The position numbers and the translations under genes were made by a program. Of a stretch of 64,000 bases of DNA, positions 57,387 through 64,000 are shown in pieces (the stretch's first letter is position 1; each line of letters begins with the position of its first letter). The notes beneath the pieces are model-generated. The model saw only the letters and a list, made by a program, of their open reading frames with translations. It did no database searches and had not been told where the DNA came from. Origin of the DNA: Cellulomonas chitinilytica. Its GTDB lineage: Bacteria; Actinomycetota; Actinomycetes; Actinomycetales; Cellulomonadaceae. The stretch covers positions 62,001 to 126,000 of the forward strand of contig NZ_BONK01000004.1 of assembly GCF_016862675.1 (NCBI RefSeq), written 5' to 3'.

Positions 57387-57463
57387 GTGTCGGGTGTGGG
57401 GTGTGGGGTGTCCGATGTCCGATGTCCGGTGTCCGGTGTCCGGTGTCCGCTGTCCGCTGTCGG
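57387..57463 (+). repeat. Heptanucleotide tandem repeat (11 units)
   Basis: Eleven 7-base units with consensus NTGTCCG run from 57387 to 57463; the last eight differ only at the first base (G, A or C) except for a C-to-G change in the final unit. The tract ends inside a PopR-type box in the promoter region of the ClgR/PopR-like gene. Early units are G-rich (GTGTGGG). Repeats of this type change copy number by slippage and could modulate promoter spacing or accessibility. Confidence 0.85.
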
Positions 57464-57467
57464 CAGA
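57453..57467 (+). promoter_or_regulatory. PopR-type box upstream of the activator gene
   Basis: TCCGCT-GTC-GGCAGA matches the PopR motif TCTGCC-N3-GGCAGA in 10 of 12 positions, with identical half sites to the distal box in front of clpP. It overlaps the end of the heptamer tract. A TAGCGT -10-like element (57501-57506) begins 34 bases downstream, the spacing expected for an activator site. Confidence 0.55.
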
Positions 57468-57539
57468 AGGCCGTGCACGCCGCTCGCGCGGCCCCGGCGT
57501 TAGCGTGACGGACAGGCGCACGCAGACCGGAGGCGACCC

Positions 57540-57965
57540 ATGACGCAGCAGCTCACCCCCGCCCGACACCGCCCGGCGCAGCCGGTGGAGCCCCTCATGC
57601 GCCGGCTGGTCGGCGGCATCCTGCGTCGGCGGCGCGAGGAGCAGGGCCGCACGCTGCGGGACGTCGCCGAGTCCGCCCGGGTCTCCGTCGCCTACCTCTC
57701 GGAGGTCGAGCGCGGCCGCAAGGAGGCGTCGTCCGAGGTGCTCGTCGCGGTGTGCCGGGCGCTCGGGATGCGGCTCGTCGACCTCGTCGGCGCCGCCCAC
57801 GCCGAGCTCGCCCAGGCCGAGGGGCGCGTCGTCGTGGACCTCACCGCCCGCGCCCGCGCCGACCTCGCCGTCCTCGCGTCGACCCCCGACCGCGAGCGTG
57901 CCACCGGGTCGCACCTGTCCGTCGTCGACGAACCGGCCGGCCAGGTCCTGCTCCTCGCGGCCTGA
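57540..57965 (+). CDS. popR: ClgR/PopR-family XRE transcriptional activator of clp genes
   Basis: 141 residues. The HTH domain LRRRREEQGRTLRDVAESAR, VSVAYLSEVERGRKEASSEV and LVAVCRALGM is the strongly conserved ClgR/PopR DNA-binding region. The C-terminus is QVLLLAA; ClgR and PopR of Streptomyces end in Ala-Ala, which makes them substrates of ClpP1P2. The gene lies 90 bases from and convergent to a clpP pair and carries its own PopR-type box. PopR rather than ClgR is favoured by the motif and the accessory clpP pair. In Streptomyces PopR activates clpP3clpP4. Confidence 0.7.
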   Translation: MTQQLTPARHRPAQPVEPLMRRLVGGILRRRREEQGRTLRDVAESARVSVAYLSEVERGRKEASSEVLVAVCRALGMRLVDLVGAAHAELAQAEGRVVVDLTARARADLAVLASTPDRERATGSHLSVVDEPAGQVLLLAA

Positions 57966-58055
57966 CCGGCCCCGCACCCGACCGACCCCGCGCCCCGACC
58001 GGCCCCGCCGCGGACCTGACCTGGCCTCGCGCCCCGTCAGGCCGCAGCCCCGCCG

Positions 58056-58667
58056 TCAGGCCGCCGCCGTCAGCCCCTTCAGCGTCGTCACCACCCGGTC
58101 CGCGAGCCCGTAGTCGACGGCCTGCTGCGCCGTGAGGATGAGGTCCCGCTCGGTGTCCCTGCGCAGCTTCTCGACGCTCTGCCCGGTGTGCCGCGCGAGC
58201 ACGTCGTCCACCTGCGCCCGCAGCCGCAGGATCTCGCCCGCCTGGATCTCCAGGTCGGCCGCCGTCCCCTCGGCACCGCCCGACGGCTGGTGCAGCAGCA
58301 CCCGCGCGTGCTCGAGCACGTGCCGGCTGCCCGGCGTCCCCGCCGCGAGGAGCACGGCCGCAGCCGACGCCGCCTGCCCGAGGCAGAACGTCGCCACGTC
58401 CGGCTTCACGTACTGGATGGTGTCGTAGATGGCGAGCAGCGCCGTGATCGAGCCGCCCGGCGAGTTGATGTACACGTGGATCGGCAGGTCAGCGCTCTCC
58501 GACTGCAGGTGCAGCAGCTGCGCGATGACGACGTTGGCGACGCCGTCGTCGATCTCCGTGCCGAGGAACACGATCCGGTCGGACAGCAGCCGGGAGAACA
58601 CGTCGGACGCGCGCTCCCCCGTCGGCCGCTGCTCCACGACGTACGGGATCGTGTACTGCCCGGCCAT
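58056..58667 (-). CDS. clpP: ATP-dependent Clp protease proteolytic subunit (second gene of pair)
   Basis: 203 residues. Catalytic triad Ser101 (GQAASAAA), His126 (LLHQPSGG) and Asp171 are intact, and the propeptide is short. ClpP forms tetradecamers that degrade proteins delivered by ClpX or ClpC. Its ATG overlaps the upstream clpP stop (TGATG), so the two subunits are made together and probably form a mixed barrel. No ClpX, ClpC or trigger factor gene is nearby, unlike the main clpP1P2 locus, so this is the accessory pair. Confidence 0.93.
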
Positions 58668-59284
58668 CAGAGCCCCGCCTTCCGGGTCACGTCGGGCCGC
58701 ACGTCGTCCAGGTGCTCGACGACCCGGTCCACGAAGCCGTAGTCCCGCGCCTCCTCGGCGGTGAACCACCGGTCCCGGTCCGAGTCCTTCTCGATCGTCT
58801 CGACGGACTGCCCCGTGTGCTCCGCGATGAGCCCCTGCATGGTCCGCTTCACGTGCGCCATGTTCTGCGCCTGGATCGCGATGTCGATCGCCGTCCCCCC
58901 GATCCCACCCGACGGCTGGTGCATGAGCACCCGCGCATGGCGCAGCGCGAACCGCTTCCCGGGCGTCCCACCGCTGAGCAGGAACTGCGCCGCCGATGCG
59001 GCGAGACCCATCGCCAGCGTCGCGACGTCGTTCGGGATGAGCCGCATCGTGTCGTACATCGCGAGCGCCGCGCTCACCGAGCCGCCGGGCGAGTTGATGT
59101 AGAGCGCGATGTCGCGGCGCGGGTCCTCGGCGGACAGCAGCAGGAGCTGCGCGCACACCCGGTTCGCGAGCTCGTCGTCCACCTCCTGCCCGAGCAGGAC
59201 GATGCGCTGGTGCAGGAGCCGCGTGGACAGGTCGTCGTCGAACGGTCTGGTCGTGGGTGGTGTCGCGGTGCGGGCGGTGATCAT
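58667..59284 (-). CDS. clpP: ATP-dependent Clp protease proteolytic subunit (first gene of pair)
   Basis: 205 residues. Ser97 (MGLAASAAQ), His122 (LMHQPSGG) and Asp167 form the triad; the usual Gln before AAS is Leu (MGLAAS), a small departure near the nucleophile. GGAGG precedes the ATG. It heads the two-gene operon and has a tandem PopR-type double box 73-102 bases upstream, with CAGCGT (59327-59322) as possible -10. In Streptomyces the equivalent clpP3clpP4 operon is switched on when ClpP1 is lost. Confidence 0.93.
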
Positions 59285-59356
59285 GGTGCGCCTCCGAGGG
59301 GTCGTCGTGCTGACTCCCACGACGCTGCCACCGTCGGTCACGGCCGGGACGTCGGG

Positions 59357-59386
59357 TCTGCCGTGCGCAGATCCGCTCCCGGCAGA
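59357..59386 (-). promoter_or_regulatory. Tandem PopR-type double box upstream of clpP
   Basis: Two adjacent 15-base boxes: TCTGCC-GTG-CGCAGA (59357-59371) and TCCGCT-CCC-GGCAGA (59372-59386). Each has one perfect PopR half site and one with one or two changes. Together with one flanking base on each side they form a 32-base near-palindrome (59356-59387) that recurs at 63650-63681 with 27 of 32 bases identical. Confidence 0.65.
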
Positions 59387-59415
59387 CGAGCAGGGGCGAA
59401 CGAGGTGCCGGTGCG

Positions 59416-59976
59416 TCAGCCGGTCGCCGCGGCCGCCCCGACGACGAGCATGCCCGCGAGCAGGAACGGCACGAGCGAGACAGCCACGAGGCCGACCGCC
59501 ACGCGCGTCGGCCCGCCCGTTCCCGGCGGGACCGTACGAAGGCGCCGGAGCACTGCCTGCACCGCGAGCGGAGGTGCCGTGGCCGCCGCGACGAACAGCA
59601 GCTCCGGCATGGCCGACGGGTCGCCCACGACCCAGATGGCACTCCACGCCGCGTAGAGCAGGACGAGCGCCAGCACCACCCAGGCGACCCCCGACAGGAA
59701 CCGGAGCGATCCCCTGCCGATGTCGGCAGGCCCTGCGCTCGCTCGCTGCCCACCGACGACCGCGACGACGACGCTCCCCGCAGTCACGACGGCGACCAGC
59801 GTCAACGCGCCACCGCCGTCGCCGGAGGCATCCGCCACCGCGAACGCCCAGTCGAGGATCGCGCGCACCTGCAGCAGCACGACGCACGACCACACGACGG
59901 CGAGCACGACCGATGCGCCCCGGCGCGGGGCTGCCCCCGACCAGGTCGGAGGCACGGTCCCGTCGGGATCCGTCAC
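59416..59976 (-). CDS. Membrane protein of unknown function
   Basis: 186 residues, GTG start overlapping the stop of the large upstream gene (GTGA). Five membrane segments: [78 protein letters not shown] and [20 protein letters not shown]. No family recognised. It is the last gene of a three-gene operon with an Rv2525c-like protein and a Tat-exported protein, and is therefore probably part of the same surface process. Confidence 0.75.
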
Positions 59977-62414
59977 CTGCCGGCCTCGAGGAACAAGCGG
60001 TCCGAGAAGGCACGCCCGACGGCGTCCATCTCGGCGTCGAGCTCGTCCTGCGTGATCAGCTCCCCGTTGATCCCCTCCTCGCCCGGGCGGCGGTGGCCGT
60101 CGATCTTCCGGTTCACCGGGAACCGGAAGAGGTGGTTCTCGAACAGGTCGCGGACCGCCGACCGCACGTTCGCCGCCGAGCCGTCGAACCGCTCGTCGAG
60201 GAACGTCCGGTACCGCCACCGCGGGTCCGTCTGCGCGGCCACCCGGATCTCACGGAGCGCGTCGGAGACGGGTCGCTGCAGGTTCGTGCCTGAGATCCGC
60301 CGGTAGACCAGGTAGGCGTCCACGTCCGAGACGAGGTCGGCGCTGCCGAACGTCGACCCCTCCGCGGTGGTGCCGAGGCGCTCCGCGAACCACGACGACA
60401 CACGCACTGTCGGCTCGTGCCAGCGCGCCTCGGCATACTGCGCCCACAGCGTCACGAGATCGAGCGCCCAGCCGCCCAGGTCACCCACGGACGTCCTGTC
60501 CGCCGTCGAGACGTCCATCCACATCATGTAGGCGCGTGTCGATGCGGCGAGGTGCGGGATGTCGCCCTCGTACGAGCCCTCCGGCGGGAGCCCCGAGGCC
60601 GACGAGTAGAAGCTGCTGCGCAGCTCGGTCGCCTGGCCGGCGACGACCGGGCCGATCACCGTCACGAAGGACGCGATCGTCTCCTTGAGCGGCGTGTAGA
60701 TCTTCCACTCGGTGTCCCAGTACCCGTCCTTCTGCAGGTAGTGCAGGACGAAGTCGTTGAGCAGCGGGCGGACCAGGAGCTCGATGCCGGACTGCTCCAG
60801 CACACCCTCGGCCTCCCAGCAGAGCGACGTCGTCTGCCAGAAGAAGTCGTCGAAGGCCGGTGCCGTCGTGCCACCCGTCGTCACCATCCTGTCCGGGGTC
60901 GGCAGGACGTCGGCGGCTCCGAGCGGCTCCGCCCGCGGGGAGCCGATGTTCTTGTCGATGGTGATCGCGTTCGTCCCCGAACCGACCGTCAGCGTCTGGA
61001 TCTGGTCGTAGGCCCAGTTGTCGGGGAGCGAGAAGCCCAGGTTCCCGCTCCATCCTCGCGGGATGCCCGACGACCACGAGCTCACGGCCAACCCGGCCTG
61101 CGACACCTTCTGGCAGACGTTGCGCGCACCGTAGACCCCGACGCGGTAATCCGCCCCCGCCCAGCCGAGGCCGAGCCGGACGCCCTCGAAGTACGGGATC
61201 ACGAGCCCTTCGATGTCACCCCCCGTGGCGTCGAAGTCCACCGAGAAGTAGATGACGGCGCCGGGAGCGATCCCGAGCTGGCGTGCACGCAGCTGGGCAA
61301 GCTTGCCCTGGTTCACGCCGATCTCCTTCGAGAAGTACTGCGGCGCGTTCGCGAACTCCTGGAACACCGGGAAGAACTTGAGGCCGCCCTGGTGGATGGT
61401 ACGGATCTCGAACGGCGCGATGCGCTTCGACGCGACGCTGAGGTAACGGCCGACGGCGCGGTAGCCCGCGTCGTAGAGCGTCGCGACGGTGCCCGGCGTC
61501 AGGGGCTTGTTCGTGTCCGCGACCGTGCCGCGCCTGTCGGGGTCCCCGGTGCTCACGAGGAGCGACGCCCACGTCGCATAGTCGCCGCGGCCCGTGGACG
61601 GCAGCTGGGTGAACTCCTGGAACTCGAGCACCTCGTCCTTGGTGCTCGCCAGGAACGTCCCGTCGAAGGGAGGCGTGTACGCGTTGAAGATCAGGGCCGC
61701 CTGGAACAGTCGCACGAACCGCTTGGCACCGTCGACGCTCCCGGTCCCGACCGTCCCGGACGCCTTGAGCCCCGACTGCGTACCGGGACCGAACGTCCCG
61801 TTCGCGACACCGTCGGCCATCCCGAGCTCGTACTGGATCGCGAACATGAGGGCCTTCTGGACGTCGCGGGAGAACACCCCGTCGCACGGCACGACGTAGA
61901 AGTCCTTGCGGTGAAGGTACGTCTCGTTCAACCACTGCTGTGCCTGCCGGATGCGCGCCGTCCCGCCGTACCAGGTCGACGTGACGTAGCCGTCCATCGT
62001 CAGGATGCTCTTCATGAGCTTCGCCGAGATGTCGGGGGCGGACGTCGACAGCCCCATGTCACGCTTCATGCTCACGCACGACGCCGCGAGCTGGTCGTCG
62101 AACGTGCCGTTGCCGACCGTGCCGCCCGGGTACCCCTTGCACCACAGCGCCGCGCGCAGGATCCGGACCACGTTCCCGCTGGGGGTGCTCGGCGAGATGC
62201 TGCCGATCATGCTGGTGAATCGCGACTCGGTGGTCGCGCCGAAGTTGTCGGAGAGCGCCGTGATGCTGAGCTCGATCTGCAGCGCCCGGGTCAGTGCCCA
62301 CACCGTGCGCCACCCGGTGATCCCGTCCTCCTCGACGGGGACGTAGCCCGGTGACACGCCGGTGTAGGTGGAGTTGACCCACTTCTGCGCGAGCAGGACC
62401 TGCTGGTCTGTCAT
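59973..62414 (-). CDS. Rv2525c-like glycoside-hydrolase-like (DUF1906) protein with N-terminal repeats
   Basis: 813 residues. Residues about 1-290 contain peptidoglycan-binding-like modules (LAQKWVNSTYTGVSPGYVPV; ARIRQAQQWLNETYL; TKDEVLEFQEFTQLPSTGRG). Residues about 305-510 are the DUF1906/Rv2525c glycoside-hydrolase-like barrel: LYDAGYRAVGRYLSVASKRI, GAVIYFSVDFDATGGDIEGL, YRVGVYGARNVCQKVS. The C-terminal 300 residues are unrecognised. In Mycobacterium, Rv2525c is a Tat-exported wall-associated protein; here no signal peptide is seen, so export may depend on the operon partner. Its stop overlaps the membrane-protein start. Confidence 0.8.
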   Translation of the reverse strand: MTDQQVLLAQKWVNSTYTGVSPGYVPVEEDGITGWRTVWALTRALQIELSITALSDNFGATTESRFTSMIGSISPSTPSGNVVRILRAALWCKGYPGGTVGNGTFDDQLAASCVSMKRDMGLSTSAPDISAKLMKSILTMDGYVTSTWYGGTARIRQAQQWLNETYLHRKDFYVVPCDGVFSRDVQKALMFAIQYELGMADGVANGTFGPGTQSGLKASGTVGTGSVDGAKRFVRLFQAALIFNAYTPPFDGTFLASTKDEVLEFQEFTQLPSTGRGDYATWASLLVSTGDPDRRGTVADTNKPLTPGTVATLYDAGYRAVGRYLSVASKRIAPFEIRTIHQGGLKFFPVFQEFANAPQYFSKEIGVNQGKLAQLRARQLGIAPGAVIYFSVDFDATGGDIEGLVIPYFEGVRLGLGWAGADYRVGVYGARNVCQKVSQAGLAVSSWSSGIPRGWSGNLGFSLPDNWAYDQIQTLTVGSGTNAITIDKNIGSPRAEPLGAADVLPTPDRMVTTGGTTAPAFDDFFWQTTSLCWEAEGVLEQSGIELLVRPLLNDFVLHYLQKDGYWDTEWKIYTPLKETIASFVTVIGPVVAGQATELRSSFYSSASGLPPEGSYEGDIPHLAASTRAYMMWMDVSTADRTSVGDLGGWALDLVTLWAQYAEARWHEPTVRVSSWFAERLGTTAEGSTFGSADLVSDVDAYLVYRRISGTNLQRPVSDALREIRVAAQTDPRWRYRTFLDERFDGSAANVRSAVRDLFENHLFRFPVNRKIDGHRRPGEEGINGELITQDELDAEMDAVGRAFSDRLFLEAGR

Positions 62415-62438
62415 GTCGGTGAGCCTCCTGGTGAGCGG

Positions 62439-63530
62439 TCAGACCGTGCCGACGGCGACGCCGTCGACCTGGGGCGTGCCGGACGCGGTGAGGTCCGCGG
62501 TCGTGTAGCCGCCGGTGTCGCGCAGCCGCTCGCCTGGTACGCCTGTGCCGGTGAGCGCCACGGACGCGAATCGGATCGCGCGGCCGACCTTGTCCCCGGT
62601 GGACCCGAACGCGAGCTGCACCCGCAGCGCCGATCCTGCGGCGACCTCGGGCAGCACCAACCGGGTCCTCAGCACGTCGCCGACCTGTTCGGAGCTCGCC
62701 TGCAGCAGTGCGACGTCGACCGGCTGGTCGGCGGGCGCGTCGGGACTGCCGCCGTCCGCGCCGACCTCCGCCTCCGACCGCGAGAGCGGGGCGGTGACGG
62801 CGGCCGCGGTCGCGGTGCACGAGGACGCCAACGCGCTGTCGACCTCGACCGTGAGCGACGCGCCGGCCGGCACGGGCAGGGGGCCGACGCTCTCGACGCG
62901 GACCGCTGAGGGGAGGCGGTAGCCGACCGCCGTCGCCGCCCACGCCGCGGTGACGAGCGCACCCCACGGGGCCACGCCGCTCGTGGCGGCGGGCGCGACC
63001 CACCGGTAGGCCCGGCGCTCCAGGCTTCCCTGCCGCCCCACGGCGATCTCCAGCGGGAGGGGCACGCCGATGTTCTCCGACGGGAACAGCTCTCGTGGCC
63101 GCAGCGGCAGCGACACGATCGTCGAATCGCGTGTCCGCGCCCGGCCGTCGGGCCGGGCGACCGAGAACCGCAGGACGCCGAGACCTGCGGCGTCGGGGCC
63201 GGTGACCTGCGGTGCGGCCGTCCAGACGGCGCCTGCCGCGGCCAGCACCACGTCGCCCGTCGCGTCCAGGAGCCGCGTGTCGAACGACACGGTCATCTCC
63301 AGGCGCGACGCTCCGGACGCGAAGCCCGCCAGCTCGAGCACGAGCGGAACCTCGAGCGTCGTCTCCTGCGCCCACGTCACGTCGAACGTCCGCAGCGGGA
63401 CGGACTGCAGCACCGTCAGGGCCAGCGGCCGGCGAGGCCCGCTGTCGCTCGCGTGCGCCGGCTCGGACAGTCCGACGACGACCGCTCCCGCGGCGATCGA
63501 CCCGAGCACGGTTCTCCGCGACACGTCCAT
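62439..63530 (-). CDS. Tat-exported protein of unknown function
   Basis: 363 residues from the ATG at 63530 with GGAGGGGAG upstream. The N-terminus MDVSRRTVLGSIAAGAVVVG has the twin-arginine motif SRRTVLG and ends in AHA before SDSG, so folded export by Tat is predicted. The mature protein is beta-rich, with repeated strands such as LEMTVSFDTRLLDATGDVVL and LRVQLAFGSTGDKVG. No catalytic motif is recognised. It heads the operon with the Rv2525c-like and membrane genes. A tandem PopR-type double box lies 121-150 bases upstream. Confidence 0.75.
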   Translation of the reverse strand: MDVSRRTVLGSIAAGAVVVGLSEPAHASDSGPRRPLALTVLQSVPLRTFDVTWAQETTLEVPLVLELAGFASGASRLEMTVSFDTRLLDATGDVVLAAAGAVWTAAPQVTGPDAAGLGVLRFSVARPDGRARTRDSTIVSLPLRPRELFPSENIGVPLPLEIAVGRQGSLERRAYRWVAPAATSGVAPWGALVTAAWAATAVGYRLPSAVRVESVGPLPVPAGASLTVEVDSALASSCTATAAAVTAPLSRSEAEVGADGGSPDAPADQPVDVALLQASSEQVGDVLRTRLVLPEVAAGSALRVQLAFGSTGDKVGRAIRFASVALTGTGVPGERLRDTGGYTTADLTASGTPQVDGVAVGTV

Positions 63531-63644
63531 GTGAGCTCCCCTCCGGCGCCACGGCGTGGCTTGGCGCGTCAAGGTAGCGATATGTCGGAGATGCGAGGTG
63601 CTCGTCCGCCATGTGGGCTAAAGGTGCGCAGGTCACAGCGTCAC

Positions 63645-63686
63645 CGCCGGTCTGCCATGGGCGGATCCGCGCTCGGCAGACCGGCG
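63645..63686. promoter_or_regulatory. Tandem PopR-type double box and 12-base-arm palindrome upstream of the exported-protein operon
   Basis: TCTGCC-ATG-GGCGGA (63651-63665) and TCCGCG-CTC-GGCAGA (63666-63680) repeat the architecture found before clpP. The symmetry here extends to perfect 12-base arms CGCCGGTCTGCC (63645-63656) and GGCAGACCGGCG (63675-63686). On the minus strand TAGCCC (63620-63615) begins 31 bases from the proximal box, similar to the -10-like elements at the other two sites, so the target is probably the operon that starts at 63530. Confidence 0.6.
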
Positions 63687-63882: not shown

Positions 63883-64000
63883 ATGCAGCTGCGCAGGCGC
63901 AGGTCGGTGGCCGGACGGATCGTCGCGACGATCACACTGATGGTCGCGATGGTCGCGGGGACGTCGGTGGCGGCGAACGCGTACAGCGCGTCGTACTCGG
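63883..64000 (+). CDS. Secreted protein (N-terminal fragment)
   Basis: 39 codons before the right edge. MQLRRRRSVAGRIVATITLM, then VAMVAGTSVAANA before YSAS, is a complete signal peptide with a positively charged start and an ANA cleavage site. GAGAGG lies upstream. The mature sequence is cut off, so function is unknown. It is divergent from the exported-protein operon and shares its upstream region with the PopR-type double box. Confidence 0.6.
   Translation, partial: MQLRRRRSVAGRIVATITLMVAMVAGTSVAANAYSASYS

What the first reader, a model, noticed from the sequence alone, without database searches (positions are those of the whole stretch)
57453..63686. A PopR-type regulon joining an accessory ClpP pair to an exported-protein operon
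Sequences matching TCTGCC-N3-GGCAGA occur three times, each 29-33 bases from a TAGCxx/CAGCGT -10-like element: before the ClgR/PopR-like gene (single box 57453-57467), before the clpP pair (double box 59357-59386) and before the Tat/Rv2525c-like/membrane operon (double box 63651-63680). The two double boxes share 27 of 32 bases. From memory, Streptomyces PopR binds this motif to activate clpP3clpP4. Control of a surface-protein operon by the same box would be new.
Basis: partly seen in the sequence, partly recalled or inferred. Interest (0 to 1): 0.9.

Follow-up and report, generated by a model that had tools for sequence, protein, structure and literature searches.

The report
Clp-backup switch before exported-protein genes
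In this Cellulomonas genome a 30-base DNA element, laid out like the one the Streptomyces regulator PopR uses to turn on a back-up protein-degrading enzyme, stands before that enzyme's genes and again before a neighbouring operon that begins with a protein predicted to be exported, so this operon would likely be switched on when the main protease fails, although no test has shown it.

Summary
The boxes are real, although none is a perfect TCTGCC-N3-GGCAGA. The true unit is a 30-bp palindrome, TCTGCC-N3-GGCRGATCYGCC-N3-GGCAGA, with the layout printed for the S. lividans PopR site. Of 81 Cellulomonas genomes 56 have it, in 55 directly before a clpP pair with popR nearly always tail-to-tail. The core lies about 29 nt on, and a 15-bp box before popR is conserved (52 of 55). 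These parts are a new member of a known system.

The claimed novelty, the box at 63651-63680, is partly supported. It is beyond chance (expected about 1e-4 per genome) and its similarity to clpP promoters stops at the box. But it scores below all 31 clpP boxes compared, lacks the canonical core, and was found before no relative of the operon (0 of 5). G067 has a relic duplicate box in the same rplI-clpP interval, so a scar is a serious rival.

Boxes with good cores also precede an NAD-epimerase gene (this and several other Cellulomonas), a methyltransferase gene and, in another family, a metallo-hydrolase gene. PopR regulons beyond clpP look likely, the epimerase being the best-supported case.

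The parts
57453..57467 (+). single 15-bp PopR-type box before popR (TCCGCTGTCGGCAGA)
   Evidence: a 15-mer at up to 2 mismatches in 52 of 55 genus popR upstream regions
57501..57506 (+). TAGCGT, -10-like element of popR, 33 nt from the box
   Evidence: TANSGT or close variant 28-30 or 33-34 nt from the box in nearly all loci
57540..57965 (+). popR: 141-residue HTH_3 protein ending in LLLAA
   Evidence: Ala-Ala end in 56 of 57 orthologues
58056..58667 (-). second clpP gene of the pair
   Evidence: Pfam CLP_protease 9.7e-74
58667..59284 (-). first clpP gene of the pair
   Evidence: Pfam CLP_protease 8.2e-72
59322..59327 (-). CAGCGT, -10-like element of the clpP operon, 29 nt from the box
59357..59386 (-). 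30-bp double PopR-type box before the clpP pair
59416..59976 (-). third gene of the operon: 186-residue membrane protein, five hydrophobic segments
   Evidence: no Pfam or NCBIfam match
59973..62414 (-). second gene of the operon: 813 residues, peptidoglycan-binding and Rv2525c-like domains, no signal peptide seen
62439..63530 (-). first gene of the operon: 363 residues, Tat-like signal (SRRTVLGS), beta-rich model
63615..63620 (-). TAGCCC, poor -10-like element, 30 nt from the box
63571..63576 (-). TACCTT, alternative -10-like element (TANNNT), about 74 nt from the box
   Evidence: read; not tested
63651..63680 (-). second 30-bp double PopR-type box, between the operon and the divergent gene at 63884
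63884..64000 (+). start of a 187-residue gene with a signal-like N-terminus and a peptidoglycan-binding-like sequence (by eye), running out of the window

Best explanation
This is a PopR-type module: a 30-bp palindromic operator stands before a ClpP pair, a 15-bp single copy before the regulator gene itself, and a second 30-bp copy before a three-gene operon (predicted Tat-signal protein, Rv2525c-like protein, membrane protein), and PopR likely binds all three and would switch on the ClpP pair and, less surely, the operon when the housekeeping ClpP stops degrading it. Shown here: the operators and their places, the conserved core about 29 nt downstream at clpP promoters, the conserved popR box, the Ala-Ala end of PopR. 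Inferred from Streptomyces: PopR is degraded by ClpP1P2 with a Clp-ATPase and builds up when that protease fails; by its place next to the expected -35 region it would recruit RNA polymerase to a weak -10. Proposed and untested: the operon came to lie between rplI and clpP in this lineage under a clpP-type box, so that envelope proteins would be made together with the back-up protease.
For: Same box layout as the printed S. lividans PopR site. In Cellulomonas 56 of 81 genomes have the box, 55 of them before clpP; in a class sample 64 of 67 examined places are before clpP. Near-fixed core, popR box in 52 of 55, Ala-Ala end in 56 of 57. Box flavour T..A or G..C goes with the popR subclade. For the operon: box with one mismatch, expected about 1e-4 per genome; similarity to clpP promoters confined to the box, flanks not better than shuffles. 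Boxes with good cores before other non-clpP genes.
Against: For the operon: box score 30.1 bits, below all 31 clpP boxes compared (33.4-48.7; own clpP 41.6), core -24 at its register against a median of +21 (2 clpP cores also score low, being shifted by one base). No box before 5 of 5 relatives of the Tat-signal protein. Nearest relative G087 (89% complete) lacks the operon between rplI and clpP. A relic double box exists in the same interval in G067 and a box left after clpP-popR loss in G102. That the clpP pair is accessory was not tested by counting clpP genes here.
Confidence: 0.5

Rival explanations
1. The 63651 box is a scar: a copy of the clpP operator left by a duplication or insertion in the rplI-clpP interval; PopR may bind it, but it does not set the operon's expression.
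For: G067 has exactly such a relic there: box with intact core and 41 codons of clpP, then unrelated genes, then the intact clpP copy. G102 keeps a box after losing clpP and popR. The 63651 box is the weakest of those compared and has no core.
Against: No trace of clpP core or coding sequence downstream and no flank similarity, while the box keeps all but one consensus position; in a scar old enough to lose its flanks the box should decay too, unless the break points lie at its edges.
Confidence: 0.33
2. PopR binds the 63651 box but acts on the divergent secreted-protein gene at 63884, or represses rather than activates the operon.
For: The box is a palindrome between two divergent units. A clpP-like GACGCTG lies only 8 nt downstream of the box on the operon side, where a bound protein would cover the -35 region (read by eye).
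Against: No nAnnnT-G core at +29 in the direction of 63884 either (read); known PopR action is activation.
Confidence: 0.14
3. The double boxes are chance matches in G+C-rich DNA.
For: Single 15-mers are common: 45 perfect sites against 31 for the reversed pattern in 81 genomes.
Against: 30-mers: expectation about 1e-4 at up to 1 mismatch, reversed control 0 for the own-genome consensus.
Confidence: 0.01

Closest known systems
PopR and clpP3-clpP4 of Streptomyces lividans (Viala, Rapoport and Mazodier 2000; Viala and Mazodier 2002; known here through passages of PMC9765437 and PMC9775585)
   Same: HTH regulator of the ClgR kind ending in Ala-Ala, two-gene clpP operon, 30-bp operator of two abutting 15-mers before it
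   Different: popR carries its own conserved single box; a second double box stands before an exported-protein operon, and single boxes before an epimerase gene
ClgR regulon (Streptomyces, site GTTCGC-5N-GCG as printed in PMC9775585)
   Same: paralogous regulator, also a Clp substrate with a C-terminal Ala-Ala; NCBIfam ClgR model matches the window protein at 93 bits
   Different: below the model's cut-off of 170; different site; a second ClgR-like gene (49% identical) lies on contig 8 of this genome
Rv2525c-like proteins (Pfam PF08924)
   Same: the 813-residue protein carries this domain
   Different: its own N-terminus shows no signal peptide; the Tat-like signal is on the protein encoded just before it. 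That this partner carries it out is speculation

Membership tests
PopR-clpP3P4 module | XRE-type HTH regulator of the ClgR kind | tested here: met
   Pfam HTH_3 1.3e-12; NCBIfam ClgR 1e-26 but under its cut-off
PopR-clpP3P4 module | 30-bp double box TCTGCC-3N-GGC...GCC-3N-GGCAGA before a clpP pair | tested here: met
   59357-59386, 2 mismatches to the genus consensus; layout as
PopR-clpP3P4 module | regulator ends in Ala-Ala, the degradation signal named for ClgR | tested here: met
   window protein ends LLLAA; 56 of 57 orthologues
PopR-clpP3P4 module | regulator degraded by ClpP1P2 and binding the box | not testable with these tools
   needs protein work
PopR-clpP3P4 module | clpP pair is accessory to a housekeeping ClpP1P2 | not tested
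   clpP genes elsewhere in the genome were not counted; G102 lacks the pair and popR at this locus
PopR-clpP3P4 module | PopR rather than ClgR by phylogeny | not tested
   no tree with named PopR and ClgR was built
Tat-signal/Rv2525c-like operon as a PopR target | operator sequence upstream | tested here: met
   63651-63680, 1 mismatch, weakest score of those compared
Tat-signal/Rv2525c-like operon as a PopR target | nAnnnT-G core about 29 nt from the box | tested here: not met
   TTAGCC at 29, TAGCCC at 30; scores -18 and -24, at best -9.5 within 6 nt
Tat-signal/Rv2525c-like operon as a PopR target | box conserved before orthologous operons | tested here: not met
   0 of 5 relatives, all distant
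Tat-signal/Rv2525c-like operon as a PopR target | PopR-dependent expression | not testable with these tools
   needs RNA data
NAD-epimerase gene as a PopR target | box conserved before orthologues with a -10 element downstream | tested here: met
   perfect in this genome, G087 and G030, 2 mismatches in G067, G066, G059, none in 5 of 10 upstream regions examined; G014 met through its box

The most novel reading that the evidence does not exclude
PopR is a general reporter of Clp-protease failure: besides a back-up ClpP pair it commands satellite genes that differ by lineage (an NAD-epimerase in Cellulomonas, a methyltransferase in two of its genomes, a metallo-hydrolase in another actinomycete family, and here an exported-protein operon captured beside clpP), so that a jammed cytoplasmic protease is answered at the cell envelope as well.
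Probability: 0.3. Interest if true: 0.65.

Novelty: new variant of a known kind. Interest (0 to 1): 0.45.

Why it matters
In the passages seen of PMC9765437 and PMC9775585 PopR acts on clpP3-clpP4 only, and the listings showed no title naming another target; subscription papers are not covered. A second class of targets would turn a one-operon rescue circuit into a regulon that reports protease failure, and would give a sequence rule (30-bp box, about 29 nt, nAnnnT-G) for finding its members. The conserved epimerase site makes the question testable independently of the singular site in the finding.

Tried and rejected
Strict single box as a genome-wide marker: rejected, since perfect 15-mers are barely above the reversed control (45 against 31 sites in 81 genomes).

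Non-clpP double-box hits set aside as chance: L143, L104, L115 and L204, which lie in or at the end of coding sequence. G102 set aside as a relic, because the genes flanking its box flank clpP-popR in related genomes.

Common origin of the flanks of the 63651 box and of clpP boxes: no alignment better than shuffles (left flank against G087 0.17, best 0.07 against own clpP). Similarity of the upstream region to that of C. citrea around TTAGCC: not better than shuffles (0.54 and 0.82). Both inconclusive.

Fold of the Tat-signal protein: mean pLDDT 70.6, pTM 0.58; the listed Foldseek matches, integrins and surface adhesins, have query TM-scores of 0.16-0.30. I take from it only 'beta-rich'.

A scan of the own genome for GGCAGA, a gap of 25-36 and TANCGT found 3 places, of which only popR has the other half of the box.

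Not done: count of clpP genes in this genome, PopR/ClgR tree, signal-peptide prediction by program. Two class places (G740, G794) of 69 outside this genome were not fetched. G013's epimerase match was partial and G087's second match weak; both were dropped before counting (10 upstream regions examined). L083 was left out of the popR count because its upstream stretch is too short. One row of the 57 PopR ends, of the 55 'genus' cores and of the 31 clpP boxes (L089, G048) is from another genus of the order.

Full report
What is there. On the + strand at 57540-57965 lies a 141-residue HTH protein. Tail-to-tail with it, on the - strand, lie two clpP genes (58056-58667, 58667-59284). Upstream of these on the same strand lie a membrane protein (59416-59976), an 813-residue protein with peptidoglycan-binding and Rv2525c-like domains (59973-62414) and a 363-residue protein with a Tat-like signal (62439-63530). 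A gene for a secreted-looking protein starts divergently at 63884, and rplI follows beyond the window. The genome is a Cellulomonas: three genomes that the tool calls same-genus are identical over 3.8-4.1 kb to records of C. citrea, C. terrae and C. phragmiteti.

The operator. None of the window's sites is a perfect TCTGCC-N3-GGCAGA. The unit that matters is 30 bp, two abutting 15-mers. A review prints the S. lividans PopR site as TCTGCC-3N-GGCGAATCTGCC-3N-GGCAGA and says that PopR activates the clpP3 operon by binding it (PMC9775585, passages). This is the layout at 59357-59386 and 63651-63680, the only two sites of this genome at up to 3 mismatches to their shared consensus. Of 81 Cellulomonas genomes 56 have a site at up to 3 mismatches to the genus consensus (reversed control 12 hits). 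In 55 of the 56 one stands directly before the clpP pair. The exception, G102, has lost clpP and popR between the two genes that flank them in related genomes. Three further genomes have only a single perfect 15-mer before clpP (L078, L080, L082), and so have G070, G085 and G091. In an order sample 21 of 396 genomes have a site: 20 places outside this genome, 19 before clpP. In a class sample 68 of 394 have one: 69 places outside this genome, 67 examined, 64 before clpP.

The promoter rule. At clpP promoters the box is followed about 29 nt on by nAnnnT and then G. In 55 sites of the genus set (one, L089, from another genus) A stands in 51, T in 51 and the G two places on in 54; in 73 order and class sites A in 52, T in 54 and the next G in 67. 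Two genus sites are shifted by one base (L081, L091). Before popR a 15-mer at up to 2 mismatches was found in 52 of 55 genus loci, while single-base shuffles reach 2 mismatches in 1-4% of cases. A TANSGT-like element lies 33-34 nt on in 31 and 28-30 nt on in 24 of 56 loci, L089 included. PopR ends in Ala-Ala in 56 of 57 orthologues. The outer bases of the box (T..A or G..C, some mixed) go with the popR subclade, which supports PopR as its reader.

The disputed site. The box at 63651-63680 has 1 mismatch; about 1e-4 such sites are expected in a genome of this size (assumed 74% G+C). Similarity with the clpP promoter ends at the box (28 of 33), and its flanks resemble those of nine clpP-type sites no better than shuffles do. 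Against it: its matrix score of 30.1 is below all 31 T..A clpP boxes compared (33.4-48.7; own clpP 41.6), and its core scores between -9.5 and -36 at all shifts from -6 to +6, against a median of +21. The Tat-signal protein is rare: 4 of 81 genus genomes, this one with two copies, 4 loci in the named genome collection, 3 proteins in the large protein set (their surroundings are not known). No box lies upstream of the five relatives examined. In G087, the closest relative met (ClpP 97-98%, PopR 91%; 89% complete), rplI is followed by box and clpP. So the operon probably came in between rplI and clpP and now has a box on either side. G067 shows what a relic looks like there: rplI, box with intact core, 41 codons of clpP, unrelated genes, then box and intact clpP. 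The window has no such remnant. I hold control of the operon by PopR somewhat more likely than a scar, but it is not shown.

Other targets. The only perfect 15-mer of this genome lies 51 bp before an NAD-epimerase/NmrA-like gene (L001; Pfam) with TACCGT 39 nt on. Alone this is chance level. But of 10 orthologous upstream regions G087 and G030 also have a perfect box, G067, G066 and G059 one with 2 mismatches, and five (G065, G060, G098, G023, G008) none; where there is a box the -10 element lies 28-29 or 39-40 nt on, one helical turn apart. G014 was met independently through its perfect box. A methyltransferase gene in G079 and G018 has a perfect box with GAGGCT 29 nt on. In a genus of another family two of six genomes (G720, G768) have a double box before a metallo-beta-lactamase-fold hydrolase gene with TACCGT 28 and 29 nt on. 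PopR-type boxes before non-protease genes thus recur.

Literature. Seen: passages of PMC9765437 and PMC9775585 and the listings. One Bellier and Mazodier paper was looked up and is not held; the Viala papers are known here only as references in the two papers.

Verdict. Observation partly confirmed. The clpP and popR parts are a conserved new member of a known module. The extension to the exported-protein operon is a plausible single-genome case with a weak core. The better case for a wider regulon is the epimerase gene.

Noticed in passing
L001:1501-1515 (G000:C5:111205-111219), outside the window: Perfect single PopR-type box 51 bp before an NAD-epimerase/NmrA-like gene, also present before orthologues in several Cellulomonas genomes.
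   Followed up: partly
L265 (G079) and L277 (G018): Perfect single box before a class I methyltransferase gene with GAGGCT 29 nt on.
   Followed up: partly
L187:3959-3988 (G720) and L189:3772-3801 (G768): Double box before a metallo-beta-lactamase-fold hydrolase gene, far from clpP, in two of six genomes of another family's genus.
   Followed up: partly
L127:8159-8388 (G067): Relic duplicate of the clpP promoter with 41 codons of clpP between rplI and the intact clpP locus.
   Followed up: partly
L114:8836-8865 (G102): Box left behind after loss of clpP and popR between a hydrolase gene and dinB.
   Followed up: partly
L139 (G074, C. phragmiteti): A relative of the Tat-signal protein directly follows rplI while clpP lies on another contig: the 3' side of rplI may be an insertion hot spot.
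   Followed up: no
59973-62414: The 813-residue protein has no visible signal peptide although its partner has a Tat-like one; the gene pair recurs at G000:C9.
   Followed up: no
popR upstream regions, L070-L134: Spacing from box to -10 is 33-34 nt in one group of genomes and 28-30 nt in the other, half a helical turn apart.
   Followed up: no
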